Part shown: piece after piece, positions 27,565 to 42,500 of the stretch
How the letters are laid out: every line of letters starts with the position of its first letter
How positions within the stretch are numbered: position 1 is the first letter of the stretch
DNA from: Haloarcula sp. DT43
GTDB lineage: Archaea > Halobacteriota > Halobacteria > Halobacteriales > Haloarculaceae
Direction of reading: 5' to 3'
Assembly: GCF_037078405.1 (NCBI RefSeq)
Contig: NZ_JAYMGZ010000001.1
Location: forward strand, 620,001-684,000
DNA: 64,000 nt
Program-made: the position numbers and the translations under genes
The notes under the pieces: model-generated
The model's database searches: none
What the model saw: the letters and a program-made list of their open reading frames with translations, nothing else
Told to the model about the DNA's origin: nothing

Positions 27565-28103
27565 CCCGCGAACCGGCCCACGAGTGGCCCGTCGTCGAGA
27601 GCGAACGCGAGTACGAGACCGGCTGGTACACCGGCGGCTACGACCGGGTCCGCCAGCCTGACGGCTCCGAGAAGGACTACTACTGGGCCGAACTCCCCGA
27701 TGCGGCCGTCGTGGTCGCCACGACCGGCGACGAACTCGTCATGGTCGACCAGTACCGCCCGACCATCCGCGAGCAGTGCCTCGAACTCCCCGCCGGCATC
27801 GTCGAAGACGACGAGTCCTACACGACCGCCGGGGCGCGCGAACTCCGCGAGGAGACCGGCTTCGAGGCCGCCGGCGTCTCGCTCATCGAGGCGTTCTCGT
27901 GTTCGACCGGCGTGCTCCGGCACCGCCGCGGCATCGTCTTCGCCGAGGGCCTGGAACCGGTCGACCGGGACCTCGACGACAACGAGTTCCTCTCCGTGAC
28001 GACCGTCCCAATCGACGAGGCGCTGCAGGTCGCCCGCCGCGAGCCGGCCAACGACGCGACCATCGAGGGTATCTTGCTGGCGCAGGCCGACGGACTGTTG
28101 TAG
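27561..28103 (+). CDS. NUDIX hydrolase (ADP-ribose pyrophosphatase-like)
   Basis: Hydrolyses a nucleoside diphosphate linked to another group; the closest pattern is ADP-ribose pyrophosphatase. The 180-residue protein has the full NUDIX box, GIVEDDESYTTAGARELREETGF at about residues 80-102, preceded by MVDQYRPTIREQCLELPAG, the ADPRase-like lead-in. The substrate is inferred. The ATGA overlap with the membrane-protein gene couples its translation to that of the preceding operon. Confidence 0.88.
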   Translation: MTREPAHEWPVVESEREYETGWYTGGYDRVRQPDGSEKDYYWAELPDAAVVVATTGDELVMVDQYRPTIREQCLELPAGIVEDDESYTTAGARELREETGFEAAGVSLIEAFSCSTGVLRHRRGIVFAEGLEPVDRDLDDNEFLSVTTVPIDEALQVARREPANDATIEGILLAQADGLL

Positions 28104-28141
28104 TCGGTGAAGGTTTAGGCGTCGGCCGCTAGCGGCTGGAT

Positions 28142-28525
28142 ATGGACGGCGAAATCGACGCCGACGAGTTGCGGGCGAGACTCGAAGACGGGACGGTCCG
28201 GGTGGTCGACATCCGGTCGCCCGGTGCGTTCGAGCGGGGCCACATCCCCGGGAGCGAGAACGTCCCGTTCCCGTCGCTCGTCGACGAGGTCGAACGGTTC
28301 GAGGGCGACGACGAGGTGGTGACGGTCTGTCCCCACGGGAAATCGAGCGTCCAGGCCGCCCGCCTCATCGCTTCCTACGAGGGATTCGACGGCGACGCCG
28401 TGAGCCTCGCGCCCGGCCTCGACGGCTGGGACGGACCGCTGGAACAGGCTGACTCATCCGCGTCGGCGGGACCGACTGCTGCCGCCGACGACGGCTCCGA
28501 CGAGGGGCCCGACGCCCCGTTCTGA
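28142..28525 (+). CDS. Single-domain rhodanese-like protein
   Basis: A 127-residue rhodanese domain protein. The catalytic cysteine loop is TVCPHGKSSVQAA, and the typical lead-ins VRVVDIRSPGAFERGHIPGSENVPF are present. It may move sulfane sulfur or act in cyanide or thiosulfate metabolism. The C-terminal 30 residues are a polar, disordered tail. It follows the NUDIX gene by 38 bp. Confidence 0.85.
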   Translation: MDGEIDADELRARLEDGTVRVVDIRSPGAFERGHIPGSENVPFPSLVDEVERFEGDDEVVTVCPHGKSSVQAARLIASYEGFDGDAVSLAPGLDGWDGPLEQADSSASAGPTAAADDGSDEGPDAPF

Positions 28526-28612
28526 TGCCGCCGACTCGATAATCAGACAGTTGACCGCTCTCCATCCGCTACATCGGCAGAATAATCAGCCCACGCGGTT
28601 TTGAGAGAGCAC

Positions 28613-29938
28613 ATGAGCAGTTCACCGGATGACTTCGACACGGTTCGCCTCTTCTGGTCGGACATCCACGGTGTCGTGCGCGGCGTCTCAATGTCGGCCG
28701 ATGCCTTCGGGGCCGCCCGCGAGGAGGGGATGGGATTCGCCAACGGCGTCGCCGAACTCACGCTCGAACCGGGAATGCTCGACGACCCGCAGTTCGGCCC
28801 CGAGACTGGCGACATGCTCGCGGTGCCCTCGGTCGAGACGCTCGCACCGCTCTCCTGGCGCGACGGCGAGGGAGTGGTCTTCGCCGACCTCCGGACCGTC
28901 GACGGCCGGCCGTTCCCGCTCTGTGCTCGGACCGCGCTCCGCTCCGTCCTCGACGAGTACCGCGACGAGGGGTTCGAACCGTTCGCCGGTGTCGAGGTGG
29001 AGTTCTCGCTCTACGCCGACGAAGAGGGCCGAGAGCCGTTCAACACGCGGACCTCCTACGACATGGCCGCCATCGACCGGGCGGCTGAGGTCATCGACGA
29101 GTGGAACGACGCGATGGCCGCGGCGGGCCACGACCTCACGAGCGTCCACCAGGAGTCACAGCCGGGTCAGTACGAGGTGACCCTGGAGTACGGCGACCCG
29201 CTCTCGACGATGGACGGAACGGTGTTCCTCCGGCACGCGGTCGGCGCGCTCGCCCGCCGGCGCGGGATCGAGGCGACGTTCATGCCCCGACCGCGGGGCG
29301 GCGAGGCCGCGAACGGGACGCACTTCCACGTCAGCCTGTGGGACGAGGCCGGCGAGGAGAACCGCTTTGCGGGCCCGGCCGACGACGCGCTGCAGTTCCC
29401 CGCCGGCCACCGGCCCGCGGACGGGGGGCTCTCGGAGACGGCGCGGCACTTCGTCGGCGGCGTGCTGTCGCACGTCGACGCGCTCACGGCCCTCTGTGCG
29501 CCGACGGTAAACTCGTATAAGCGCCTCGTCCCGGACATCTGGGCCCCGACGACGGTCGGGTGGGGCCTCGACAATCGCTCGACCGTCCTCCGTATCCCGC
29601 CCGAACTCGGGGCCGGTGCCCGCGTCGAGCACCGACTCCCCGATTCGGCCTGTAACCCCTATCTCGCGATGGCGGCGACGCTCGCGGCCGGACTGGACGG
29701 GATTCGGTCCGAGACGGTACCCGACGACCCGATCGAGACGGGCACGGCACCCGATGGGAACCGACTCCCGCGGACGCTGTGGAGCGCGCTCGACGCGCTG
29801 GCGGCCGACGACGTGCTCCGAGACGCGCTGGGGGCGGACCTCGTCACCGAGTTCGTGAAGCTCAAGCGCGAGGAGTTCGACCGGTATCAAAACAGCGTCG
29901 GCGGCTGGGAGACCGACGAGTACTTCGACGCGTTCTAG
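28613..29938 (+). CDS. Glutamine synthetase-family ligase (possible gamma-glutamyl-amine ligase)
   Basis: A 441-residue glutamine-synthetase-like protein. The N-terminal beta-grasp part is FDTVRLFWSDIHGVVRGVSM. The catalytic barrel shows VEVEFSLYAD, ANGTHFHVSLWDE, APTVNSYKRLVPDIWAP and the arginine-rich end of the active site ARVEHRLPDSACNPYLAMAATLAAG. Divergent GS-like ligases glutamylate amines such as ethanolamine or polyamines, and this gene sits beside an ABC importer and ethanolamine lyase genes, so an amine substrate is inferred. A TTG four codons upstream is a less likely start. It overlaps the regulator gene tail to tail by 4 bp. Confidence 0.85.
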   Translation: MSSSPDDFDTVRLFWSDIHGVVRGVSMSADAFGAAREEGMGFANGVAELTLEPGMLDDPQFGPETGDMLAVPSVETLAPLSWRDGEGVVFADLRTVDGRPFPLCARTALRSVLDEYRDEGFEPFAGVEVEFSLYADEEGREPFNTRTSYDMAAIDRAAEVIDEWNDAMAAAGHDLTSVHQESQPGQYEVTLEYGDPLSTMDGTVFLRHAVGALARRRGIEATFMPRPRGGEAANGTHFHVSLWDEAGEENRFAGPADDALQFPAGHRPADGGLSETARHFVGGVLSHVDALTALCAPTVNSYKRLVPDIWAPTTVGWGLDNRSTVLRIPPELGAGARVEHRLPDSACNPYLAMAATLAAGLDGIRSETVPDDPIETGTAPDGNRLPRTLWSALDALAADDVLRDALGADLVTEFVKLKREEFDRYQNSVGGWETDEYFDAF

Positions 29939-30684
29939 TCGCTGTTGGCGGCGTTGGCCCGCGTGCCAGCCGACGGACCGGCCGCGTCGTCTCGCAGGAG
30001 CGAGCCGACGGCGTTGAGAATCTTCGCTTCCGAGCGCCGGAGGTGCTCGCCGACGGTCGAGGTATTGGCCGAGTCCGTCGCCGCGAGATCCTCGATCCCG
30101 CAGCTACGCGGCGAGTCGTAGTATCCGGCTTCGACCGCGCTGGCGAGAATCTCCTGCTGTCGGGGCGAGAGGTCGGCGATGGCCTCCTTGATCTCGGCCA
30201 ATCCGGTCAGGAACTGGTCGTGGTTCGGCGTCTTGAGCGAGTTCACCTCGACCGAGCCCAGCGACTGGAGTTCCTCGTGGGTCTGTGAGACGCTCTCGTG
30301 GTCGCTCGCCAGGACGTTCCAGTGTTCCGTGCCGTCGGTGACCGTCGGCGGAACGGTCGGGAAACACCGGTTCCGAAGGAGGACGTTCAGCACGGGCTCC
30401 GTGTCGGTGTCCGGGTCGTACTCCCCGGCGAGGCTGACGTAGGCCGTCTCCCGCCCGTCGTCGTAGCTGATGAGCCTGGCGGCGGTCATGATCGGGTGGT
30501 CCCCGAGCCACGCGACCAGCGGATCGACCCGGTCGGCCGACACGCCCGTCGCCTCGATCATCGTGATGCTGGTCCCGAACAGCTGGTACGAGTAGATGAT
30601 GGTCGCCGACACTTCGGGGAACGAGTCGTTCATCGTCTCCGTCCAGCAGTTTTCGTGGGTTATCTCGAAGGTGTACTCGATCAT
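29935..30684 (-). CDS. HTH_10 transcription regulator of the ethanolamine region
   Basis: A 249-residue haloarchaeal regulator with a C-terminal HTH_10 domain (LSPRQQEILASAVEAGYYDSPRSCGIEDLAATDSANTSTVGEHLRRSEAKIL). The N-terminal 150 residues are a sensor-like domain. The start MIEYTFEITHENCW is preferred over an upstream ATG at 30741 because a TATAAATA box on this strand (30723-30730) would otherwise lie inside the coding region. It sits between the glutamine-synthetase-like gene and the importer operon and is the obvious candidate regulator of both, though nothing in the sequence proves this. Confidence 0.87.
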   Translation of the reverse strand: MIEYTFEITHENCWTETMNDSFPEVSATIIYSYQLFGTSITMIEATGVSADRVDPLVAWLGDHPIMTAARLISYDDGRETAYVSLAGEYDPDTDTEPVLNVLLRNRCFPTVPPTVTDGTEHWNVLASDHESVSQTHEELQSLGSVEVNSLKTPNHDQFLTGLAEIKEAIADLSPRQQEILASAVEAGYYDSPRSCGIEDLAATDSANTSTVGEHLRRSEAKILNAVGSLLRDDAAGPSAGTRANAANSD

Positions 30685-30791
30685 TTCCGTCTCGCCGTTC
30701 GGTTGGAACGCCGCCGCTCTAGTATTTATACACTTCGTCAAAAGAGTGGGGAAAACTTAATGCAATATAAGGACAGCGGCTGAATTTGCGA

Positions 30792-30808
30792 CAGAACGTA
30801 TAATTCTG
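30792..30808 (-). terminator. Inverted repeat after the ABC importer operon
   Basis: CAGAA (30792-30796) and TTCTG (30804-30808) flank a seven-base AT-rich spacer just beyond the stop of the last permease gene. It may be a terminator of the importer operon or an operator for the regulator gene downstream on the same strand. The stem is short, so the call is tentative. Confidence 0.3.
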
Positions 30809-30816
30809 CCGACTAA

Positions 30817-31638
30817 TCACTCGTGTTCGCCAGTCCCGCTTTTGTTGTACTCGAAGAGCGCGACGACCACGACGAGCAGGACCGACGAGTAGAAGATCAG
30901 CGAGGAGACGGCCGGGACGGTCGGAGTGAACCCCTGGGTCATCTTCGCGTGGATCCACGTCGTGATGGTGCTCTGCGCGCCGGAGAGATACGAGACGATG
31001 TAGTAGTTGTTCCAGGCGAGGACGAACGCGAAGATCGCGCCCGAGACGATGCCGTCCGCGATGAGCGGCAGGACGACGTCCTTGTACAGCGTGACGGTGT
31101 CGGCCCCGAGGTCGCGCGCGGCCTCCTCGATGTCCGGATCGACGCCGAGCGCGGTGATGGAGACGACGAACATCACGATGGGTGAGATCCACACGAGTTC
31201 GCCGATGATCGACGGCACGATGCCGTAGCCGAGATTCGTGACGTTCGCCCACAGGGACATGCCGAGTCCGAGCAAGAGGAGCGGGAAGAAGATGGGCAAC
31301 AGCGCCAGGAGCTTGAACTGCTCCCGGAACGGGAACTCGTGGCGGGTGTAGGCAACGGCCCCGCCGGTGCCGATGACGGTGCTGAGAATCGTCACCGGGA
31401 CCGCGATCCGCGCCGTGTTCAGGAACGCAGACTGGATGCTGGTCGAGGCGAACGCGACCTCGTACCAGTGCAGCGTGAACGCGTAGTCCACGATGGAGAG
31501 GAACCGCCCGTCGTAAAACGAGGCGATGACCAGCGTGAACAGCGGCGTCATCAGGAACAGCGCGACGAGCAGGACGTAGCCGTACCACGCGCCGGCTCGG
31601 AGCCGCGGCGCGGACAGCCGCGGGGTGTTCGCGCTCAT
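30817..31638 (-). CDS. ABC transporter permease, PotC-like
   Basis: Inner-membrane permease of an importer, 273 residues, with about six predicted helices. The cytosolic EAA loop that docks on the ATPase is DIEEAARDLGADTVTLYKDVVLPLI near residues 168-192. It resembles PotC of the spermidine/putrescine systems. Its start overlaps the end of the PotB-like gene by four bases. It is the last gene of the four-gene importer operon, which runs binding protein, ATPase, permease, permease. Confidence 0.9.
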   Translation of the reverse strand: MSANTPRLSAPRLRAGAWYGYVLLVALFLMTPLFTLVIASFYDGRFLSIVDYAFTLHWYEVAFASTSIQSAFLNTARIAVPVTILSTVIGTGGAVAYTRHEFPFREQFKLLALLPIFFPLLLLGLGMSLWANVTNLGYGIVPSIIGELVWISPIVMFVVSITALGVDPDIEEAARDLGADTVTLYKDVVLPLIADGIVSGAIFAFVLAWNNYYIVSYLSGAQSTITTWIHAKMTQGFTPTVPAVSSLIFYSSVLLVVVVALFEYNKSGTGEHE

Positions 31639-32585
31639 CGGCTCTCACCTCGCGAGGCGATCTCCCGGAGGTCGAGCGACCGGAGGATGAGGACCCCCGC
31701 GACGATGGTGATGAGCAGCAGGCCGACTGCCTGTGCCGACCCGAGCGGCCAGTTCTGCGAGTAGCCAAAGGAGTAGTTGATGTTGCTCGCCATGGTGAAC
31801 ACGGAGCCGCCGCCGAGAATCTGGGCCTCGACGTCCGCGCCGAGGCTGAGGACGAACACGAACAGCGAGCCGATGACGACGCCCGGCATGCTCAGCGGGA
31901 AGACGATCTTCCGGAAGATGGTGAGCGGGCCCGCCCCGAGGTCCTGCGCCGCCTCGAACGTCACGTCGTCGATGGTCAGCAGGGAGAGGTAGATCGGGAA
32001 TAGCATGAACGGCAGGTAGACGTACGTCGTCCCGAACAGCACCGTGTATCGGTTGTACAGCAGCGACGGGTACTCGCCGACGCCGACCAGATTGAAGAGG
32101 CTGTGGAGCACGCCGTTCTCGACGAGGAACAGCGCCCAGCCGAACACGCGGACGTTCACGCTCGTGAACAGCGGGATGATGAGCAAGAGCAGGAACACGA
32201 CCTTGTACCGCTTGATCTTGCGCGCCAGCGCGTACGCCGCCGGGTACGAGACGACCAGCGTGGCGAGTACGGTCGCGGCGCTGACGAGGGCGGTATTGGC
32301 GAGGACCTGCCCGTAGACGCCGGTGCCGCTAATCATGCCGGTGATGATCTCGGCGTAGTGTGCGAGCGTCCAGCCCAGCGGGTTCGGGTCGATCGTGTTG
32401 CCGGACTGCAGCGAGAAGACGACGATGGCCAGCATCGGCCCGACGAACATGAACAACAGGAGGGCGACGATGGGTGCCATGAACAGCCACGGCGGTCGCA
32501 CAAGCGCGAACAGCGGGTTACTGCTGTTGCGGGTGTAGCCGGCCGCGCGGTCGAAGTGGCTCTTGAGGAGGTGTTTCGTGGACAT
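31635..32585 (-). CDS. ABC transporter permease, PotB-like
   Basis: First permease of the importer, 316 residues with the start chosen at MSTKHLLKSHF, which lies 2 bp after the ATPase stop; a longer frame exists. It has a long cytosolic N-terminus, then about six helices beginning WLFMAPIVALLLFMFVGPMLAIVVFSL. The EAA loop is TFEAAQDLGAGPLTIFRKIVFPLSMPGV. It pairs with the PotC-like permease, and overlapping start and stop codons suggest coordinated synthesis. Confidence 0.9.
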   Translation of the reverse strand: MSTKHLLKSHFDRAAGYTRNSSNPLFALVRPPWLFMAPIVALLLFMFVGPMLAIVVFSLQSGNTIDPNPLGWTLAHYAEIITGMISGTGVYGQVLANTALVSAATVLATLVVSYPAAYALARKIKRYKVVFLLLLIIPLFTSVNVRVFGWALFLVENGVLHSLFNLVGVGEYPSLLYNRYTVLFGTTYVYLPFMLFPIYLSLLTIDDVTFEAAQDLGAGPLTIFRKIVFPLSMPGVVIGSLFVFVLSLGADVEAQILGGGSVFTMASNINYSFGYSQNWPLGSAQAVGLLLITIVAGVLILRSLDLREIASRGESR

Positions 32586-32587
32586 TG

Positions 32588-33649
32588 TCACTCGGGAACG
32601 GGGATGGATTTCTCGGGCTCCCACTGGAAGTAGGCCGTGTCACCGATTTCGATGTCGACGTCCTGGAACCAGTCGAAGGGAACCTCGGCTACGTAGTCTT
32701 CCGACGCGTCGGCCGAGCACTCGATGAGAACCGTGTTGCCGCGGACGAGGATATTGTCGACGGTCACCTCGAGGCCGACGGACGTTTCGAGCGCCGGACG
32801 GACGACGCAGTCGTCGTAGCGCACGACGAGGTCGGTCGGTTCGCGCCCGTCGTGGCTGTCGTCGACGGTGACTTCGCCCCGGAAATCCTTGCTTGTGACG
32901 GCGAACGCGCCGTCGTCGGTGCGCTCGGCGTCGACGGCGAAGACGTTGGCGTCGCCCATGAAGTCCGCGATGAACGTCGACTTCGGCGACTGGTAGATGT
33001 CCTCCGGCGCGCCGGTCTGGGCGACCTGGCCCTCGTCGAGGACGAACAGCGTGTCGCTCATGACCAGCGCGGCTTCCAGTGAGTGGGTGACGTAGATGAA
33101 TGTCATGTCCAGTTCCCGGTTGAGGTCCGCGAGTTCGCGCTGGAGCTGTTTCTGCAGGGCGTAGTCGAGCGACGCCAGCGGCTCGTCGAGCAGGAGGATG
33201 TCCGGGTCGTAGGCGAGCGAGCGGGCGAGCGCGACGCGCTGTTTCTGCCCGCCCGAGAGCTCGCTCGCGCTCTTGTCGGCGTGCTCGTCGGGATCCAGAC
33301 GGACCAGTTCGAGCAGTTCCTCGACCGACCTGTCGAGGTTCCGGCCCGCGGTTTCGATGGGGAACTCGATGTTCTCCCGGACCGTCATGTGCGGGAACAG
33401 CGCCCACGTCTGAAAGACCAGGCTCGTCGGTCGGTCCTGCGGTCGCGTCGCCGTGATGTCCTCGCCGTCGAGGACGATACCGCCGGAGGTCGGTTCGAGG
33501 TGGCCGGCGAGCATCCGGAGCAGCGTCGTCTTGCCACAGCCGGAGGGGCCCACGATGGACGCGAACTCTCCGGTCTCGATTTCGATGTCGATGTCCTTGA
33601 CCGCCACTGTGCTTCCGTACTCTCGGCGTAGTGCTGACGTTTGTAGCAT
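32588..33649 (-). CDS. ABC transporter ATP-binding protein, PotA-like
   Basis: Energises the importer. The 353-residue protein has Walker A GPSGCGKTT, the signature LSGGQKQR, and Walker B DILLLDEPLASLD followed by THSLEAA. The C-terminal 110 residues form an OB-type (TOBE) regulatory domain typical of PotA/MalK-like ATPases. The start MLQTSALRREYG is chosen from the domain boundary; the frame continues upstream into sequence antisense to nothing meaningful. It lies 32 bp downstream of the binding-protein gene. Confidence 0.94.
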   Translation of the reverse strand: MLQTSALRREYGSTVAVKDIDIEIETGEFASIVGPSGCGKTTLLRMLAGHLEPTSGGIVLDGEDITATRPQDRPTSLVFQTWALFPHMTVRENIEFPIETAGRNLDRSVEELLELVRLDPDEHADKSASELSGGQKQRVALARSLAYDPDILLLDEPLASLDYALQKQLQRELADLNRELDMTFIYVTHSLEAALVMSDTLFVLDEGQVAQTGAPEDIYQSPKSTFIADFMGDANVFAVDAERTDDGAFAVTSKDFRGEVTVDDSHDGREPTDLVVRYDDCVVRPALETSVGLEVTVDNILVRGNTVLIECSADASEDYVAEVPFDWFQDVDIEIGDTAYFQWEPEKSIPVPE

Positions 33650-33681
33650 TGAGGTGTGTCTCGTCGGTCGAACTCGGTCCG

Positions 33682-34941
33682 TCAGATCCTGGTCTTGGCC
33701 TCGCGCCAGATGGGCTCGAACTTGTCCAGGTCGGGCACGCCCGTGTAGAAGACGCTCCGGTCGAGGATGTCTGGGATGTCGTCGACCCGGAGGACCTCGC
33801 GCTGGAAGTCGTCGTACTCGTCCCAGGCCGTCGCGTGCGGGACGACGTTGGTCCCGCCGGAGGTCGGCCACGAGAGGTTCAGCGCGGTCTCGCCGCGCTG
33901 CATGTGCGCCAGATAGTTGTCCGAGACGGTCGGCTGCTCGCCCTTGACGAACGTGGTCGTCTCGACCCAGATGACGCCGCCCTCCTCGGGGACGTGAGCC
34001 TCGAACTGGAGGTTCTCGCCGCGGCGCAGCGTCCCGTTGATCCAGTTTCCAGAGATGAACCCGATGTCGATCTCGCCCGACTTGAGGGCCTGGTTCATCG
34101 ACGCGAAGTCCGGCAGCAGCGTCTTGGCGTTGTCGAAGAGGTCGAACGTCGCCTGTCGGACCTGCTCGACTTCCTCTTCGGTGTGTTCTTTGTACGGGTC
34201 GATGCCCTCCCGGAGCATGATGATCTGGATGCCCCAGAACATCAGGTCGTAGACGCCCACGTCGTAGTCTTCCGACCAGGCGGCGTCGTAGCTGCTGTAG
34301 TCCGAGGAGGAAACGGTGTCGGTGTTGACGACGAACGAGGCCCACCCGAACCGCTGGGGCGCGCCGTACATCGTGCCGTCCACGTCGAAGGAGTAGTCGT
34401 CTTCGTTGAGGAAGGCGTACTTGTACCCGTTCTCGGGCTTGAAGATGTCGATGTACTTATCGAACGTGTACTCCTTCCAGTCCTCGTAGTCGATCGGGCG
34501 GATCAGTTCCGCCTCGGCCAGGTTCGGGAGCCAGGCCATGTCGAAGGTCGCCTGGTGGAACTGCTGCCACTCCCCAGAGTTGAGGCGGTTGAAGGCCTTC
34601 GGATTCGAGGTGAAGAGGTCCAGTTGCGTGTTGGCCTCGAACTGCTCGCGGAACGGGTCCTGGACGTTCGAGGCGTCGTAGCCGGTCCAGGTGAGGTGGT
34701 TCACCGTTTCCCCGGACTGCTCGTCGTCCCCGTTCGTATACAGTTCGTCGTAGGACTCAGCCGGAACGGTGGCGAGCTCCTGGGTCCGCCACGAGGCCGT
34801 TTCGGTTTCTCCCGACCCGGTGCCGGAGCCGGATTCGGACCCGGAACTGTCTCCGAGACACCCGGCTGACGCGCCGGTTGCAGCGAGGCTGGCCGCACTG
34901 ACTGCGAGTAACTTTCGACGTGAAATTTCGTGTTGCGTCAT
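33682..34941 (-). CDS. ABC transporter substrate-binding lipoprotein, PotD-like
   Basis: Extracellular substrate-binding lipoprotein, 419 residues. The N-terminus has a Tat motif (SRRKLLAVSAASLAATG) and a lipobox ending in ASAGC, then a Ser/Gly-rich linker. The mature part resembles polyamine-type binding proteins (NHLTWTGYDASNVQDPFREQFE, YGAPQRFGWASFVVNTDTV). The ligand is unknown; neighbouring ethanolamine lyase genes make ethanolamine or a related amine the leading guess. Its promoter carries the same 30-bp element as the eut operon. Confidence 0.92.
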   Translation of the reverse strand: MTQHEISRRKLLAVSAASLAATGASAGCLGDSSGSESGSGTGSGETETASWRTQELATVPAESYDELYTNGDDEQSGETVNHLTWTGYDASNVQDPFREQFEANTQLDLFTSNPKAFNRLNSGEWQQFHQATFDMAWLPNLAEAELIRPIDYEDWKEYTFDKYIDIFKPENGYKYAFLNEDDYSFDVDGTMYGAPQRFGWASFVVNTDTVSSSDYSSYDAAWSEDYDVGVYDLMFWGIQIIMLREGIDPYKEHTEEEVEQVRQATFDLFDNAKTLLPDFASMNQALKSGEIDIGFISGNWINGTLRRGENLQFEAHVPEEGGVIWVETTTFVKGEQPTVSDNYLAHMQRGETALNLSWPTSGGTNVVPHATAWDEYDDFQREVLRVDDIPDILDRSVFYTGVPDLDKFEPIWREAKTRI

Positions 34942-35047
34942 GGATGCGTGAAATGATGGCTCGGTCTGATCCGCTCACGACCCGTCGGGGTGCGAGCGTC
35001 GTCTGGGCGCATCATATACAGTTACTTTTCCGAATAGGGGCATTACA

Positions 35048-35077
35048 ATTCTGCCAGCTATTTCCGGTCGTTTATAA
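35048..35077 (-). promoter_or_regulatory. Conserved promoter element of the ABC importer operon
   Basis: Read on the reverse strand, a TATA box (TTATAAA) runs directly into CGACCGGAAAT and, after a short variable gap, GGCAGAAT. It matches the element before eutB at 22 of 30 positions with identical spacing. A TATA box here would put the transcription start near CAGAAT, leaving a leader of about 105 bases before the binding-protein gene. The shared part between TATA box and start is where a repressor or activator could act. Confidence 0.6.
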
Positions 35078-35175
35078 CAACAACTCTCCGCATTGTGGAC
35101 GAACTAGTAGTCAATGATTGTTCATCCACTGGATTGTAAAACAATTACTGTCGCGGACGGTCTCCGCTCTCGTCG

Positions 35176-36615
35176 CTACTCGTCGAACACCAGCGTCTTG
35201 AGGGTGGCCGGGACCGCGGTCCCGTTCGCGACTGGCGCGCCGAGATCGACGTATCTCGCGTCGTCGAGTTCGAGTTCGTCGACCAGTATCGTCGGCCGCG
35301 ACCCGACGCTCGCCGCGAGCGTCTGTCCGAGCACCTTCGCGCAGTTCTGCCCGGTCAGCGCGACGAGCGGGGCGTCCGCTTCGACTGCGGCCGCGTACGC
35401 CGTCGCGATCCCCTCCGCGACCACGGACACCCTGTCGTAGGTGAGCGGGCCGATCGACGGGAGCCACAGCGCGAACTCGCCGACTGCGTCGCCCTCCCGA
35501 GCCGTTTCGATCGCCTGCAGCGTTCGCTGTCGGACGGACGCCGCCGATTCCGCCGCGTCGAGCCCCCCGACCGTGACGACCGGGAGGTCCCTGACCGGGA
35601 GGACGCTCGCGTCCACGGCGATCGTCCGGCCCGAGAACGTCGTCGTGTGCGTCCCGACGCCGATGACGGTCGCTCTGATGTCCGTCGCCGACTCCCGGAC
35701 CGGGAGCGCGTCGAAGCGGTGGTGCTCCCGGAGCGCCGCGGCGAGCCTGACGCCCATGTCGTCGAAGGCGTATGGATCACGTTTCGCGACCTCGCCGTCG
35801 GCGACGAGTCTGCCGACCCCGCCCGTGAAAACGACCTCGTCGAGCGGCGGTGCCTTCGAGGGTAGCGAGCCGATGGCGAGCGCCTCGGTCGTCGGGTCGA
35901 ACGGCGGCCCCTCGACGCAGTCGACGATGCGCTCGGCCTGCCACGCGGCGAGCCGCCGATGTGTCGCCGGTGCGTCAGACAGCGCATCGACCGCGTCGTA
36001 GTGATCGCGAACCGAGTCCGCGACGGACGCGACCGTCCCGGTCGGCTCGAACTGCACGTCGCGCCCGCCGACGTCGAGACACCGGGTCTGCCGGGCCGTC
36101 CCGTCGACGAAGACCGCGACATTCGTCGTCCCGCCGCCGATGTCCACCGTCGCAACGGTCGTTCCCTCGGTTCGGCTCCGCGTGGCCGCACCCGCGCCGC
36201 GGCCCGCGAGCACGGCCTCGAAGGCCGCACCCGCCGTCGCGACGACGAACTCGCCCGAGCGCTCGGCCAGGCGGTCGACCAGCGGCTCGGCGTTGCGCGT
36301 CTTCGCCGCTTCGCCGGTGGCGATGACCGCGCCCGTGTCGATGTCGGCCGGCGAGCGCCCCGCACTCCGGAGCTCCCGGTCGACGAACGCGAGGACTGCG
36401 TCCGTGTCGATCGTCGATCCGTCGGCGTACGGCGTCTCGCGAATCGGGCTCCGGTAGCGGACAGTTCGGTCCAGAACCTCGACCGACGCGGCCCCGTCGA
36501 CCGCGGGCGTCTGCAGCGTCAGGTCGCTGACCACGACCTGCGTCGTGGTGGTTCCCACGTCGATGCCGACGCTGCACAGGGTCTCGGCGGCGTCTCGCAC
36601 CATCGCTTCGCTCAC
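35176..36615 (-). CDS. eutA: Ethanolamine ammonia-lyase reactivating factor EutA
   Basis: EutA restores inactivated ethanolamine ammonia-lyase by exchanging damaged cobalamin for fresh adenosylcobalamin at the cost of ATP. The 479-residue protein has the actin-like fold motifs seen in bacterial EutA: LCSVGIDVGTTTTQVVVSDL near the start, AVIATGEAAKTRNAEPLV, VATVDIGGGTTNVAVF and FTGGVGRL, then VRATVIGVGTHTTTFSG-like sequence. Similarity to the Escherichia coli protein is obvious along the length. It overlaps eutC by four bases and ends the eutBCA operon. Confidence 0.93.
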   Translation of the reverse strand: MSEAMVRDAAETLCSVGIDVGTTTTQVVVSDLTLQTPAVDGAASVEVLDRTVRYRSPIRETPYADGSTIDTDAVLAFVDRELRSAGRSPADIDTGAVIATGEAAKTRNAEPLVDRLAERSGEFVVATAGAAFEAVLAGRGAGAATRSRTEGTTVATVDIGGGTTNVAVFVDGTARQTRCLDVGGRDVQFEPTGTVASVADSVRDHYDAVDALSDAPATHRRLAAWQAERIVDCVEGPPFDPTTEALAIGSLPSKAPPLDEVVFTGGVGRLVADGEVAKRDPYAFDDMGVRLAAALREHHRFDALPVRESATDIRATVIGVGTHTTTFSGRTIAVDASVLPVRDLPVVTVGGLDAAESAASVRQRTLQAIETAREGDAVGEFALWLPSIGPLTYDRVSVVAEGIATAYAAAVEADAPLVALTGQNCAKVLGQTLAASVGSRPTILVDELELDDARYVDLGAPVANGTAVPATLKTLVFDE

Positions 36616-37373
36616 CGCTCACCGCGGTCGATCCCGCTGCGCTCGGCCTCGTGGATCTCGTCGAGCACGGCCGCGACCTCGGCACCGGCCTCGACCGGCG
36701 GCAGCCCGTTCCGGTGGATGTTCGAGATGACGGACTTCTTCGCCGTCGACTTCCCCCGTTCGGGACCGTAGACGAAGTAGGCGCTCAGGCTCTCGTTGGT
36801 CGCGAGCCCGGGGCGCTCGCCGATGAGATTGACGCAGCACTCGGCGTCGAGCACCTCGCCGACGGCGTCCATCACGTCTACCCGGCCGTACTCGACGAAG
36901 ACGGGCGTGCCCACGTCGAGCCCGCGCGCGTCCAGCCCGTCGAGGAGCGCGGGCAGCAGCTCCGGAACGTTCGCCTCGACGGCGGTCGAGCTGAGGCCGT
37001 CGCTGACGACGATCTGGACGTCGGGGGCCGGCGCACACGCTTCGCGGAGGCGCGAGGCCGCCTCCTCGGGGAGGTCTCGGCCCTTGTCGGGGTCGGCGAG
37101 GAACTCCTCCTTACTCGTCGCCCGCGACCGGACGGCGACGAGGTCGAGGCCCGCCAGCACGTCGTCGTCGACGTGCGTCGTGACCGCGTCGCGGGCCTCG
37201 CCGTGGTCGGCGCGGAATTCGAGGAGGGTCTGCGTCCGTGGACGCGGTCCCGCGCGGCCGACCCCGACCCGCGACGGGTGTGACTCGGCCAGTCGTTCGA
37301 GCTTCGATTCGTTGGTCGGTCGATCGACGCCGCCCGCCGCGTCGTCGCTCGGTGCGTTGTCGTTGGTCGTCAT
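36612..37373 (-). CDS. eutC: Ethanolamine ammonia-lyase small subunit EutC
   Basis: Small subunit of the adenosylcobalamin-dependent lyase that splits ethanolamine into acetaldehyde and ammonia. The 253-residue protein shows SRVGVGRAGPRPRTQTLLEFRADHGEARDAV, VVSDGLSSTAVEAN, CVNLIGERPGLATNESLSAYFVY and VISNIHRNGLPPVEAGAEV, all hallmarks of EutC. The N-terminal 30 residues are a polar extension. It begins 6 bp after the eutB stop and overlaps eutA by 4 bp, so the three are one transcription unit. Confidence 0.95.
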   Translation of the reverse strand: MTTNDNAPSDDAAGGVDRPTNESKLERLAESHPSRVGVGRAGPRPRTQTLLEFRADHGEARDAVTTHVDDDVLAGLDLVAVRSRATSKEEFLADPDKGRDLPEEAASRLREACAPAPDVQIVVSDGLSSTAVEANVPELLPALLDGLDARGLDVGTPVFVEYGRVDVMDAVGEVLDAECCVNLIGERPGLATNESLSAYFVYGPERGKSTAKKSVISNIHRNGLPPVEAGAEVAAVLDEIHEAERSGIDRGER

Positions 37374-37379
37374 AGCCGG

Positions 37380-38741
37380 TCAGGTGAATACCGTCGGATC
37401 CCCCGCCTTCGCCGTGAGGGCGCTCCCGTCCGCGATTCCACGCGCTTCGAGCCAGGCCTGGAACTCCGGGGCCGCCTCCAGGTCGAACAGTTGCCGGAGC
37501 GTCGCGCCGTCGTGGAAGCTGTTCGACTGGTAGTTCAGCATCACGTCGTCGCCCATCGGCACCGTGATGAAGAAGTTCGCGCCGGCGGCGGTCAGCAGGA
37601 CCGAGAGGTTCTCGATGTCGTTCTGGTCCGCCTTCGTGTGGTTCGTGTAGCACGCGTCGATGCCCATCGGCAGGCCGTGGAGCTTCCCCATGAACACGTC
37701 TTCGAGGCCTGCGCGGATCACCTGCTTTCCGTCGTAGAGGTACTCGGGGCCGATGAAGCCCACGACCGTGTTCACGAGGAACGGGTCGTACTGCCTCGCG
37801 AGGCCGTAACACCGCGCCTCGAGGGTGAGCTGGTCGACGCCTGCGTGGGCCTCGTTCGACAGCTCCGACCCCTGTCCCGTCTCGAAGTACATGACGTTCG
37901 GGCCGTCCGCGGTACACTCGCGCTGGCCCAGTTCGTGGGCGTCCCCGAGCAAGGCGCTGTCGACACCGAACTCGCGGTTGCCAGCTTCGGTGCCGGCGAT
38001 GCTCTGAAACAGCAGGTCGGCCGGCGCGCCGGCCTCGACGGCCTCCATCTGCGTCGTGAGGTGGGCGAGCACGCAGTTCTGGGTCGGCACGTCCCAGTCA
38101 CGCATGAACTCCTTCGTCGCCTGGAGGATCTCCGTCGTCCGCGCCACGCTGTCCGTCACCGGATTGATGCCGATGACGGCGTCGCCCATGCCGTAGGCGA
38201 GCCCCTCGCGCACGCCGTCGACGATGTTCTCGACGTCGTCGGTCGGATCGTTGGGCTGGAGGCGAAACGACACCGTCCCGTCGGTCCCGATCGTGTTGTT
38301 ACACCGGGCCGTCGTCGTCATCTTCGACGCGGCCAAGACGAGGTCCATGTTGGACATCGTCTTGGTGACCGCCGCGATCATTTCGCTCGTCAGCCCGTCC
38401 CGTATCGCCCGGATGTCTTCGTCGGTCGTCCCCACGTCGAGCAGGAACTCCCGGAGGTCGCTGACCGTCCACGTCCGGACCTGGTCGTACGCCCGCTCGC
38501 TCAGCCCCTCGCGGATCGTCCGCGTGACCTCGTCCTCCGCCGGCGGAACCGCCGGATTCTCGTACAACGTCTCCAGCGTCAGTTCGCTCACCGCCGTCTT
38601 CGCCGCGACGCGCTCCGCGTCCGAGTCGGCCGCGATGCCCGCCAGTTCGTCGCCCGTCTTCTGTTCGTTCGCCGTCGCTAGCAGGTCGCGTATCGAGTCG
38701 AACTCGTAGTCCGTTCGACCGAGCGTGGCTGAGTACGACAT
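37380..38741 (-). CDS. eutB: Ethanolamine ammonia-lyase large subunit EutB
   Basis: Catalytic subunit of cytosolic ethanolamine ammonia-lyase, 453 residues from the chosen start. Residues known to be catalytic in enterobacterial EutB are present in their motifs: the Arg and Gln of SFRLQPND, the Glu of YFETGQGS and the Asp of DACYTNH. Long identical stretches include LARQYDPFLVNTVVGFIGPEYLY. The frame runs 27 codons further upstream, but MSYSATLGRTDYEF aligns with the first residue of the bacterial protein. It leads the operon eutB-eutC-eutA. Confidence 0.97.
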   Translation of the reverse strand: MSYSATLGRTDYEFDSIRDLLATANEQKTGDELAGIAADSDAERVAAKTAVSELTLETLYENPAVPPAEDEVTRTIREGLSERAYDQVRTWTVSDLREFLLDVGTTDEDIRAIRDGLTSEMIAAVTKTMSNMDLVLAASKMTTTARCNNTIGTDGTVSFRLQPNDPTDDVENIVDGVREGLAYGMGDAVIGINPVTDSVARTTEILQATKEFMRDWDVPTQNCVLAHLTTQMEAVEAGAPADLLFQSIAGTEAGNREFGVDSALLGDAHELGQRECTADGPNVMYFETGQGSELSNEAHAGVDQLTLEARCYGLARQYDPFLVNTVVGFIGPEYLYDGKQVIRAGLEDVFMGKLHGLPMGIDACYTNHTKADQNDIENLSVLLTAAGANFFITVPMGDDVMLNYQSNSFHDGATLRQLFDLEAAPEFQAWLEARGIADGSALTAKAGDPTVFT

Positions 38742-39298
38742 GGTCACGAGCGCTCGGCAGACGCCGTCTCGGAGGGCCTGTCGGCTCCCGTCCGGTGTGT
38801 CCGGGGCGGCCCGCCGGGACACTGCTGTCTAGTCACTCTCATCTACCGTACAGTGTTCCACGCCGACACTGTGGATTCTGGCGCTCATTTGCGGTCGTTT
38901 AAATGAAACGAGGTGGTGAACCCGAACTTTCCGGCCGGACGTTCATTTCTGTGGCGTGCAGCGACTCCTGGCAGCGGCGCTGCTATCCTGGCGTGAACGG
39001 TGGCTCGGGAAAGGTCGTCGTCACAAGGGGCTCAGCGGGGGTAACAGTTCGTCATCGCCACCAGGCTACGGTACTCCGTCGCCAGTGAAAAGTTCGTCCT
39101 TTGTCGGGCCCGTCTGAAACCGGCGCGATACCCCGTCCCGTCGAACGGAGCGGTTCATCAGCCCTTCAGACTTCCAGGTCTGGCGGCTGTCCCACAGTGT
39201 CTCACGCCGTCCTCTCCGTCGTGAATATGTCAAAATATTGTGTAAGTTGACATTTCAATACTGATACGCTTATGTACCACTAACAGTAGATTGTTCAC
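38742..39298. other. Intergenic region between divergent eutB and glycosyltransferase loci
   Basis: This 557-bp gap has no convincing gene. Near eutB it holds the conserved promoter element at 38875-38904 and an inverted repeat ACAGTG/CACTGT (38850-38855 and 38867-38872). The right end (39225-39298) is AT-rich and carries the promoter of the forward-strand genes, with a CTTATGTA box around 39269-39276. I looked for a cobalamin riboswitch before eutB and saw none. The middle part holds nothing I recognise. Confidence 0.55.
38875..38904 (-). promoter_or_regulatory. Conserved promoter element of the eutBCA operon
   Basis: On the reverse strand a TTTAAA TATA box is joined to CGACCGCAAAT and then CCAGAAT, the same order and spacing as in the importer promoter at 35048-35077 (22 of 30 bases identical). 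The expected transcription start is near 38873, giving a leader of about 130 bases. The inverted repeat ACAGTG/CACTGT at 38850-38872 would overlap or follow the start point and could be a second operator. Confidence 0.6.
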
Positions 39299-39565
39299 AT
39301 GGCGTGGGAGAGAAACTGCCAGATAGTACCCAGTATTCAGCCGTCCCACGACGTGAGCGCCTGGTTCGACTGGTACCGACTGGCACTAGCGACGGTGCCT
39401 GCGCTCCTTTTGCTCCCCGTAGCGGTGGCTGAGCCGGTCGGCCGCACGGGCTGGGACAACAGGTCCAGCCCAGGATTCGTTCGGACGCTCGCGTATCTCG
39501 AAGAGTGGTGTGTCGTCCGCACCGGGCAAGAACTGGCGCTCGACCGAGGAGAGGGACGACGATGA
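39299..39565 (+). CDS. Possible small leaderless membrane protein
   Basis: An 88-residue open frame with its ATG about 25-30 bp after a CTTATGTA box in strongly AT-rich DNA, the spacing of a leaderless haloarchaeal transcript. It encodes one hydrophobic segment (RLALATVPALLLLPVAVAEPV) and a basic end. It overlaps the start of the glycosyltransferase gene by 56 bp in another frame. It may be a true small protein, an upstream open frame controlling the large gene, or chance. No family is recognised. Confidence 0.4.
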   Translation: MAWERNCQIVPSIQPSHDVSAWFDWYRLALATVPALLLLPVAVAEPVGRTGWDNRSSPGFVRTLAYLEEWCVVRTGQELALDRGEGRR

Positions 39566-42500
39566 GTCGGCACTCGCCACCGCTGCGACACTGTTCCGGG
39601 TGGCGCTGGTCCCGATGACGGTGCCGCTACAGGTCGCGCTGGCGATACGGGACCTCGTCTTCGCGCTCACAATCCTCCCGATACTGACTGTTTGGCTGGT
39701 GGTGAACGCGTATCTCTACTACCCGGTCTGTCTGGCGCTTCTCAAACGGCACTGGCGGACTGTACGGCGGGGCTGGCAGCGGCGGGTGCGGCGAACTGAC
39801 AGTACGGTGGCGAGCGAATCCGCGTACAGCGTCAGTGTTGGGGCGGGGGCACACGAATCGCTCGCCGACGAATCGCTACCGACGATGGCCGTGTTGCTCC
39901 CCGCGTACGAGGAGTCGGCCGTTATCGAGCAGTCTATCAGGTCCGTTCAGGCATCGAACTACCCGCCGTCGAAGCTCCAACTGTACGTCCTCACCGAACC
40001 CGGCGACGACGAAACGAGCGAAGTGCTGGCGCCGCTGTCGGAGCGGTACGACTTCGTCAATCTCGTCGTCCCGGCCGGGTACCCGAACGAACCCACCAAG
40101 CCACGGGCGCTGAACTACGGGTTCGAGCATTCGGACGAGGAGCTCGTCTGTGTCATCGACGCCGAAGACATCGTCGACCCGGAGCTGTTCAGAACCGCCG
40201 CGGCCGAGATACTGGTGGGAGACGTCGACTACGCGCAGGCGAAACTGGACATGATAAACGAGGACGACGGCTGGCTGAACACCATGTTCCGGGCCGACTA
40301 CGCCTACTGGTTTCGCTCGGTACTACCCGCTTTCGCGGACGCCGGCTACCCGATGCCGCTGGGCGGGACGAGCAACTTCTTCCGACGGTCGACGCTGACC
40401 GAGATGCACGACCGCCGGCTGGCCGAGTACGGCGACCGCTGGACCGAACCCGACTGGGAGTGGGTCCGCACGCACGGGCTGGCGGGGCTCCGTCCGTGGG
40501 ACCCACAGAACGTCACCGAGGATTTCGAACTCGGGCTGTTCCTGTGGAAGGAGGGCAAGACGTTCAGTTACATCGACCTCGTGACCCGAGAGGAGTCGCC
40601 GCTCACGCTCGACGGGTGGATAAAACAGCGGACGCGCTGGAAGAAGGGAAAGCTCTACACGTACCTGCAGTACCGAGCGACGCCGCCCGAACAGCCGCGG
40701 GCCAGATTCCACCTGTTCCTCCAGTCGATGCTGCCCCACACTGGCCCCATCAACATCGCCGGAATCGTCATCACGCTGATGTTAGCGAACTTCGCCGGCT
40801 ACGGGCCCGGGAGCCTGCTGACCGCGGGGACGTTCGTTGGCCTCGGGTTCGTTCTCTTTGCGATGTGGCTCCACGCCCGGGGCTACTGGAGCGTTTCCGA
40901 GAAGCCGCCGCGCGTCCGTCTCCAGCGCGCCATCAAAACGGCGCTCACGCTGCCGTTCTACTGGCTGCTCCAGTGGGGCGCAGACATCCGGGCGATTTAC
41001 CAGACCTACTACGGGGACTTCGACGGCTGGGAACGGACAGAACACTTCGGGCGGAACAACCAATCCGAGCCCGACGGCGGGATACCTCGCGGGCGGCGGT
41101 TGATGCCCGACGAATCGGCGACCCGTTCGACGACACTGGTGAACGAGATATGGGTCGTGCCCGTGCTCTCGACGATTGTCCTGGTCGCCATGGCGACCCG
41201 GCTGTTCGACATCACCGCGTGGAGCCTCTCCGGGAGCGAAATCCACTGGCTCAATCGGGCGAGCGGGCCGCTGTGGGGCGCTCTGATTTCGCCGGCGGAC
41301 CCACACCCGCCGCTGTACGCGCTGACACTCCGCGGGTGGGTGACGGCGTTTGGCACCGGCGACGTAGCGGTTCGAGGGCTCTCGGTGCTGTTCGCTCTCG
41401 TCACGATACTGGCGCTGTTCGTACTCACCCGAAAGCTGTACGACAACGCTACTGCCCTCGTTGCGGCCGGCCTGTTCTCCGTCGGTATCACGCAAATCCA
41501 CCTCGCTCGCACGGTCGGCCCCGCTACGATGGCGGCTTGCCTGACGGCTCTCTCGTGGCTTTACTTCTACCGCCTCGGCACGCGACGGCGTGTCGGAATC
41601 GTCTACGTGCTGGCCACCGTCGCACTCGTCTACACGCATTTCGCCGGCATCGCTGTCGTGCTCGCACAGTGGCTGTACACCGGGCTATCCGAGAGCCCGC
41701 TAAACGCCGGGTCGCGTCGGATACGACGGCCGCTGATGGCCAGTACGGCCATGGCACTCCCCTGGTGTGTCGTCGCACTCCGACCGTGGTACGGTGAGGC
41801 CACGCTCACGGGCTCGCTCGCGTACGGCTGGCTCACGACCCTCTCGCTCACGCAGATTCGAACCACGCTACTGACCCTCGTCGGGCATCCAGACGTCTAT
41901 CCGCTACTGGCCGGGAACATCATCACTTGGGTCGTCGCGAGCGCCGTGGCCACGATATTCGCAATCACCAGCGTCTTCGCCGTCTTCACCTTCCGAGACG
42001 ACGGTGGGTTCCAGTTCGTCCTCGTCGACGAGACACAGGCCGCAACACTGTCGTCCCTGCTGTTTATGTCACTGGCCGTTCCGTTCGGCGTCTCGATTCT
42101 CGACCCGTCCGTGTTCGTCGCGCAGTTCACCGCTCTCGCGGCGATTCCGCTGTACATCCTCGTCGCACGGGGACTGACGAACCTGGACCAGCGACACGTC
42201 CAGACCGGACTCGTCGTGTCACTACTGCTCGCCTCGGCAGTCTTCGGCGCGTTCTACGCCGACAGCAGCTCACAGGAGAACTGGCGCAGTCCGGCACAAC
42301 AGGTGGCGCTGTCGGCCGACGGCGGCGATATACTCGTCTTCCAGCCGGGGGCGGCCGAGGCCGGCTTCCGGCACTACTACGACGGCCCCGACATCGAAAC
42401 CGTCTCCGTGGCACGGGGGAGCGCCCTCAACGAGAGCCAGGTGCGGTACGTGCGTGCCCGGATACGCGGACACGACCGCGTTTGGTTGCTCCGCTACCGC

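What the first reader, a model, noticed from the sequence alone, without database searches (positions are those of the whole stretch)
35048..38904. Same 30-bp promoter element in front of the eut operon and the importer operon
Reverse-strand elements at 38875-38904 and 35048-35077 match at 22 of 30 positions with no gap: TATA box, then CGACCG-S-AAAT, then (after a variable stretch) CAGAAT. The conserved part extends well past a TATA box and ends where the start of transcription is expected. Such placement fits an operator read by a regulator that controls both operons. The nearby HTH_10 protein (29935-30684) is the natural candidate. The glutamine-synthetase-like gene has only the CGGCAGAAT part (28575-28583), so its control may differ.
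Basis: partly seen in the sequence, partly recalled or inferred. Interest (0 to 1): 0.75.

Follow-up and report, generated by a model that had tools for sequence, protein, structure and literature searches.

The report
Shared switch for archaeal ethanolamine genes
A short DNA signal next to the start of transcription links a predicted ethanolamine-breakdown operon and its importer in salt-loving archaea; the same signal recurs wherever one particular neighbouring regulator gene is found, even when the breakdown enzymes have been swapped for a different set, so it is very probably that regulator's binding site.

Summary
The two 30-mers match at 22/30 without gaps, are the only two such sites in the 3.75 Mb genome, and form a conservation island (TATA box to start point) between flanks that are random across species. 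In relatives with the same cluster both promoters keep the element; none of 41 eutBCA loci without the HTH_10 gene has it beside a TATA box. The HTH_10 gene is the only regulator gene seen in all these clusters. Best reading: a 14-bp dyad operator (about CCGCA-N4-TGCGG) between TATA box and start, bound by the HTH_10 protein, probably as a repressor released by ethanolamine or a product. Binding, sign and inducer are inferred. The regulon comes in two exclusive forms: coenzyme-B12 lyase (eutBCA) or a predicted gamma-glutamyl-ethanolamide route. A new member of a known kind.

The parts
38875..38904 (-). operator/promoter element of the eutBCA operon (TATA box plus dyad plus CAGAAT)
   Evidence: found by an importer-derived profile at 19.3 bits versus a maximum of 10.4 in 100 shuffles; conserved in relatives with the cluster
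35048..35077 (-). operator/promoter element of the ABC importer operon
   Evidence: conserved island in 14 species, flanks random
28575..28583 (+). CGGCAGAAT half element before the GS-like gene; no TATA box or first half-site at the usual distance
   Evidence: conserved in the window, Haloarcula salina and Halobellus (one base different); full element not detected (best score -3 bits)
29935..30684 (-). HTH_10 regulator gene, candidate reader of the element
   Evidence: Pfam PF04967 E 3.9e-13; orthologue in 17 of 391 class genomes
37380..38741 (-). eutB, ethanolamine ammonia-lyase large subunit
   Evidence: Pfam PF06751 E 1e-203
36612..37373 (-). eutC, ethanolamine ammonia-lyase small subunit
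   Evidence: Pfam PF05985 E 6e-79
35176..36615 (-). eutA, reactivating factor
   Evidence: Pfam PF06277 E 5e-124
33682..34941 (-). solute-binding protein of the ABC importer
   Evidence: lipoprotein-like N-terminus; no Pfam or PDB sequence match; first gene of a conserved operon in 15 carrier genomes
32588..33649 (-). ABC ATPase of the importer (start approximate)
   Evidence: Pfam PF00005 E 7e-37
31635..32585 (-). importer permease A (start approximate)
   Evidence: Pfam PF00528
30817..31638 (-). importer permease B
   Evidence: Pfam PF00528 E 1e-14
28601..29938 (+). glutamine-synthetase-like gene of the gamma-glutamyl-amide ligase type, convergent with the HTH_10 gene
   Evidence: best NCBIfam models gamma-glutamylputrescine synthetase and type III ligase, both under cut-off; best PDB match glutamate-methylamine ligase

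Best explanation
The element is the core promoter plus operator of a small local regulon for ethanolamine uptake and breakdown in haloarchaea. [quoted passage not shown] The HTH_10 protein encoded in the same cluster binds it, probably as a dimer, and when bound keeps RNA polymerase from starting. Ethanolamine, or something made from it, releases the protein, so importer and catabolic genes come on together. Shown here: the element, its conservation, its confinement to cluster promoters, and its co-occurrence with the HTH_10 orthologue. Inferred: binding by HTH_10, repression rather than activation, the inducer, and the importer's substrate.
For: (1) Importer promoters of 14 species: pairwise identity 26-28% upstream of the element, 74% in the TATA box, 64% in the 22 bases after it, 37% in the next 30, 27% beyond. 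(2) A profile from importer promoters alone finds the eutB element right behind the TATA box in 6 of 7 cluster carriers, and beside a TATA box in none of 41 eutBCA loci that lack the HTH_10 gene. (3) The HTH_10 orthologue (17 of 391 genomes) and the importer occur in the same genomes; two importer homologues found without it (G099, G161) have no element before them. (4) In 195 genomes of the order, profile hits at E<=0.01 fall in 5 of 5 known carriers and 1 of 190 others (carriers contributed to the profile). (5) Promoters not used for the profile: with a profile from importer and eutB sites only, Fe-ADH, GS-like and ALDH promoters rank 1-7 of 39,744 positions in ten eutB-less loci; without the TATA columns ADH scores exceed all 135 control TATA sites in 10 of 10 and GS in 9 of 10. 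(6) Genome G330, left out of the profile: the top two of 20,100 positions are the permease that replaces the ABC importer and eutB, next score 0.1; its EutB belongs to another well-supported clade, so eutB came under this element at least twice. (7) Genome-wide profile searches in the 17 carriers find almost only cluster promoters. (8) Complementarity is highest, 0.45 against about 0.23, for a dyad centred at position 16.5 (0-based).
Against: No binding, expression or start-site data. The TATA-to-start distance is inferred. All conservation arguments use related species, and the tests on ALDH promoters are weaker (core score in the top 0-4.4% of controls). No element is seen before the HTH_10 gene in the window, so autoregulation, common in local repressors, is not shown. 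Genome G074 has two good TATA-adjacent matches before unrelated genes without an orthologue.
Confidence: 0.68

Rival explanations
1. Same operator and same HTH_10 reader, but the protein is an activator, as the family's best known member Bat is, contacting the transcription machinery from a site downstream of the TATA box.
For: Bat activates the bop operon (PMC3184054); the family is known for activation.
Against: The conserved block lies between TATA box and start, where a bound protein would block polymerase; nothing is conserved in the 60 bases upstream of the TATA box (information 0.0-0.14 bits), where archaeal activator sites are expected (established knowledge; compare CsmR, PMC13286277).
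Confidence: 0.2
2. The element is read by a different, perhaps global, regulator and the HTH_10 gene is a bystander.
For: No direct binding evidence; haloarchaea have many HTH_10 and other regulators (15 HTH_10-like matches in this genome).
Against: The element is confined to cluster promoters and tracks the HTH_10 orthologue through gain and loss of importer, eutBCA and the dehydrogenases; a global regulator would have sites elsewhere.
Confidence: 0.08
3. The likeness is only that of two strong haloarchaeal promoters, or a recent copy of one promoter, without a regulator.
For: TATA boxes alone give part of the match; core-only ranks are lower than full ranks.
Against: 135 other TATA-like sites in the same loci score far lower in the core (maximum 0.2); flanks are unrelated between promoters and species; the motif persists in promoters of non-homologous genes.
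Confidence: 0.02
4. The conserved stretch works in the RNA, as a leader structure or riboswitch at the 5' end of a long leader.
For: Leaders of about 105-135 nt are expected downstream of both elements.
Against: The element lies mostly upstream of the expected start; no Rfam match; leaders fold no better than shuffles (z -0.81, -0.14, 0.69, -0.30) and are not conserved in sequence.
Confidence: 0.02

Closest known systems
Bat / HTH_10 regulators of Halobacterium (bop operon)
   Same: C-terminal HTH_10-type DNA-binding domain; haloarchaeal local co-regulation of several operons through a shared promoter element
   Different: Bat has GAF and PAS domains and acts through an upstream activator sequence (PMC3184054); here Pfam sees only HTH_10 and the element is downstream of the TATA box
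Bacterial eut operons (eutBCA with EutR or EutVW control)
   Same: EutB, EutC, EutA enzymes
   Different: Different control: an archaeal promoter element and an HTH_10 gene in the cluster; ABC importer rather than Eat or EutH
Gamma-glutamyl-ethanolamide pathway: Streptomyces GlnA4 with repressor EpuRI (PMC6529630); Phaeobacter and Chromohalobacter ethanolamine genes (PMC10132767)
   Same: GS-like ligase, alcohol and aldehyde dehydrogenases, amidohydrolase, dedicated regulator in one cluster, as in the eutB-less haloarchaeal clusters
   Different: Hydrolase candidate here is an M81/MlrC-like protein (absent in G275), importer is ABC type, regulator is HTH_10; activity untested. In the window itself the dehydrogenases and M81 are absent
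Archaeal repressors whose operators lie between TATA box and start
   Same: Position of the element relative to the TATA box
   Different: Those best known to me are not HTH_10 proteins (own knowledge)

Membership tests
HTH_10 (Bat-type) regulator | C-terminal HTH_10 domain PF04967 | tested here: met
   E 3.9e-13, 49.4 bits, cut-off 23.1
HTH_10 (Bat-type) regulator | GAF/PAS sensor domains as in Bat itself | tested here: not met
   only HTH_10 found by Pfam; N-terminal model shows alternating strands and helices at low confidence, pLDDT 57.5, no reliable fold match
HTH_10 (Bat-type) regulator | activator sequence upstream of the TATA box | tested here: not met
   no conservation in the 60 bases upstream of the element in 14 species
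Coordinately controlled regulon | same site before several operons of one pathway, conserved across species, rare elsewhere | tested here: met
Coordinately controlled regulon | regulator binds the site | not testable with these tools
   needs gel shift or ChIP
Ethanolamine ammonia-lyase (eut) operon | EutB, EutC and EutA homologues in one operon | tested here: met
Ethanolamine ammonia-lyase (eut) operon | microcompartment shell genes of long eut operons | not tested
   none among the ten cluster proteins scanned; rest of the genome not scanned for them
Gamma-glutamyl-ethanolamide pathway (eutB-less relatives) | GS-like ligase plus alcohol dehydrogenase, aldehyde dehydrogenase and amidohydrolase in one cluster | tested here: inconclusive
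   ligase, Fe-ADH and ALDH present; hydrolase candidate is M81, absent in G275; substrates unknown

The most novel reading that the evidence does not exclude
A single HTH_10 repressor and its operator have governed ethanolamine use across haloarchaea while everything downstream changed: two mutually exclusive breakdown routes (B12-dependent lyase or gamma-glutamyl-ethanolamide route) and different importers were captured under the same operator, with eutBCA captured at least twice. This would be the first described archaeal ethanolamine regulon and an HTH_10 protein that acts as a repressor from a site downstream of the TATA box.
Probability: 0.5. Interest if true: 0.65.

Novelty: new member of a known kind. 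Interest (0 to 1): 0.5.

Why it matters
Few archaeal operators are assigned to a regulator, and, as far as I know, very few to the abundant HTH_10 family. This one gives a testable 14-bp site, a named protein, an inducer guess and about 50 natural variants in 18 genomes. It also predicts the substrate of an otherwise unannotated importer and of the GS-like ligase, and suggests a second ethanolamine route in haloarchaea. Text searches of the open library found no description of ethanolamine catabolism genes in haloarchaea.

Tried and rejected
Rfam search of 28000-39600: nothing. Leader RNA folding: no better than shuffles. The inverted repeat ACAGTGT...ACACTGT in the eutB leader is not kept in Haloarcula salina. 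A Bat-like ACTAGTT upstream of the importer TATA box is shared only with Haloarcula salina, so not used. CGGCAGAATTATA about 100 bases before the HTH_10 gene is not kept in Haloarcula salina. Profile hits in G277:C34, G421:C22 and G175 lie inside a transposase-like coding sequence and were discarded. The HTH_10 structure model was too uncertain for fold comparison. Bacterial eut loci were not compared for the element.

Full report
CHECK. The two reverse-strand elements are as described: ATTTAAACGACCGCAAATGAGCGCCAGAAT (38904 to 38875) and TTATAAACGACCGGAAATAGCTGGCAGAAT (35077 to 35048), 22/30 identical without gaps; the next best match to either in the window is 18-19/30. Given that both hold a TATA box, 16 of the other 23 positions still agree (p 9e-6 to 1e-4). 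The window lies in a 3.75 Mb haloarchaeal genome near Haloarcula salina (EutB 95% identical). A genome-wide pattern search finds only these two places without mismatch.

SETTING. The reverse strand holds eutB, eutC, eutA, then an ABC importer (solute-binding protein, ATPase, two permeases), then the HTH_10 gene; a GS-like gene on the forward strand ends against the HTH_10 gene. The GS-like protein is closer to gamma-glutamyl-amide ligases (gamma-glutamylputrescine synthetase model, glutamate-methylamine ligase structure) than to ordinary glutamine synthetase.

RELATIVES. EutB occurs in 40 of 391 genomes sampled from the class. Most of these loci have eutBCA alone. The HTH_10 gene adjoins eutBCA in the window, Haloarcula salina (L007), Halobellus (L008), Natronorubrum thiooxidans (L009/L169), Natrinema versiforme (L010/L170), G385 (L124/L171) and, without the ABC importer, G330 (L118). 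A profile built from importer promoters alone finds the eutB element directly behind a TATA box in six of these seven, the window's at 19.3 bits against a maximum of 10.4 in 100 shuffles; for L008 the score is weak (6.8 bits, p about 0.05) but the place is right. In L118 this importer-only profile picked another place. Of 41 eutBCA loci without the HTH_10 gene, none has a match beside a TATA box and none stands out from shuffles after allowing for 41 tests.

THE ISLAND. With 14 importer promoters aligned on the element without gaps, information is near zero for 60 bases upstream, 0.9-1.2 bits per base through the 30-base element, 0.6 in the next ten, and falls to background after that; pairwise identity is 26-28% upstream, 74% in the TATA box, 64% in the rest of the element. 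This is what an operator between TATA box and start looks like, and not what chance or general promoter likeness gives.

BEYOND EUT. Eleven further genomes have the HTH_10 gene and the GS-like gene but no eutBCA at the locus; instead they hold an aldehyde dehydrogenase, an iron-dependent alcohol dehydrogenase and, except G275, an M81/MlrC-like protein and the ABC importer. Their importer promoters carry the element. A profile made only from importer and eutB sites, with the genome in question left out, was scanned over both strands of each 20-kb locus (ten of the eleven). The promoters of the alcohol dehydrogenase, GS-like gene and aldehyde dehydrogenase rank between 1 and 7 of 39,744 positions (no aldehyde dehydrogenase site was scored in L158). 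Because TATA boxes help such ranks, the 22 bases after the TATA box were also scored alone against 135 other TATA-like sites of the same loci: alcohol dehydrogenase sites beat all controls in 10 of 10 loci, GS in 9 of 10, aldehyde dehydrogenase sites lie in the top 0-4.4%. In G330, never used in that profile, the top two of 20,100 positions are the promoter of an amino-acid-type permease, in the place of the missing ABC importer, and that of eutB; the next score is 0.1. The permease is nearest to general amino acid transporters, with ethanolamine permease among the sub-threshold matches. The EutB of G330 belongs to a different well-supported clade from that of the other carriers, so eutB came under this element at least twice.

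THE REGULATOR. A close HTH_10 orthologue was found in 17 of 391 genomes; the importer in 14 of the same genomes in another sample, plus two distant homologues elsewhere. The latter two genomes have only distant HTH_10 paralogues and no element before the importer homologue. In 195 genomes of the order the profile rings at E<=0.01 in all five known carriers and in one of 190 others, G074, whose two sites lie before unrelated genes; the carriers' own sites are in the profile, so only the rarity elsewhere is independent evidence. In the 17 carriers nearly every hit at E<=1 with the wider profile is at a cluster promoter. The HTH_10 gene is the only regulator gene seen common to all these clusters. 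The orthologues are 61-96% identical to the window's, with the DNA-binding region almost invariant.

MECHANISM. Shown: a conserved site with a dyad centred at element position 16.5, counted from 0 (complementarity 0.45, background about 0.23), fixed distance from the TATA box, several operons, local confinement. Inferred: the HTH_10 protein binds as a dimer; because the site lies between TATA box and start and nothing upstream is conserved, repression is more likely than activation (about 3 to 1); the inducer is ethanolamine or a product. The known member Bat is an activator with an upstream site (PMC3184054), so the sign must be tested.

TWO ROUTES. eutBCA and the M81/alcohol/aldehyde dehydrogenase set do not occur together in any of these clusters, and M81 (PF07364) is absent genome-wide from all six carriers with eutBCA that were searched and present in 10 of 11 without. 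The second set resembles the route proposed for Streptomyces GlnA4, ethanolamine to gamma-glutamyl-ethanolamide to gamma-glutamylglycine to glycine (PMC6529630), and the ethanolamine genes of marine bacteria (PMC10132767); in G203 and G246 gcvT and gcvH for glycine cleavage follow the alcohol dehydrogenase. This supports ethanolamine as the common substrate but is not proof.

THE GS-LIKE GENE OF THE WINDOW. Only CGGCAGAAT is present, conserved in Haloarcula salina and, with one change, Halobellus, without TATA box or first half-site at the usual distance.

VERDICT. Observation confirmed, interpretation supported, extended to a regulon with exchangeable pathways. A good new example of a known kind of thing; its special interest lies in the HTH_10 family and in the swap of pathways under one operator.

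Noticed in passing
L222:8820-14886, L223: In G203 and G246 the Fe-alcohol dehydrogenase with the element is followed by gcvT and gcvH, as expected if the eutB-less pathway ends in glycine.
   Followed up: partly
genomes G114, G173, G188, G203, G246, G283, G320, G322, G332, G421: An M81/MlrC-like protein (PF07364) is found once in each, always in this cluster, and in none of the eutBCA carriers; possible gamma-glutamylglycine hydrolase.
   Followed up: partly
L229 and L232 (G074): Two good TATA-adjacent matches to the element before unrelated genes in a genome without the HTH_10 orthologue; perhaps a paralogue with a similar site.
   Followed up: partly
window 38846-38871 (-): Inverted repeat ACAGTGT...ACACTGT just after the eutB element, not kept in Haloarcula salina.
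   Followed up: partly
window 33682-34941 (-): The solute-binding protein matches no Pfam family and no solved structure by sequence although it heads a conserved ABC operon.
   Followed up: partly
L118:1804-3267 (-): Amino-acid-type permease in the place of the ABC importer in G330; candidate ethanolamine permease.
   Followed up: partly
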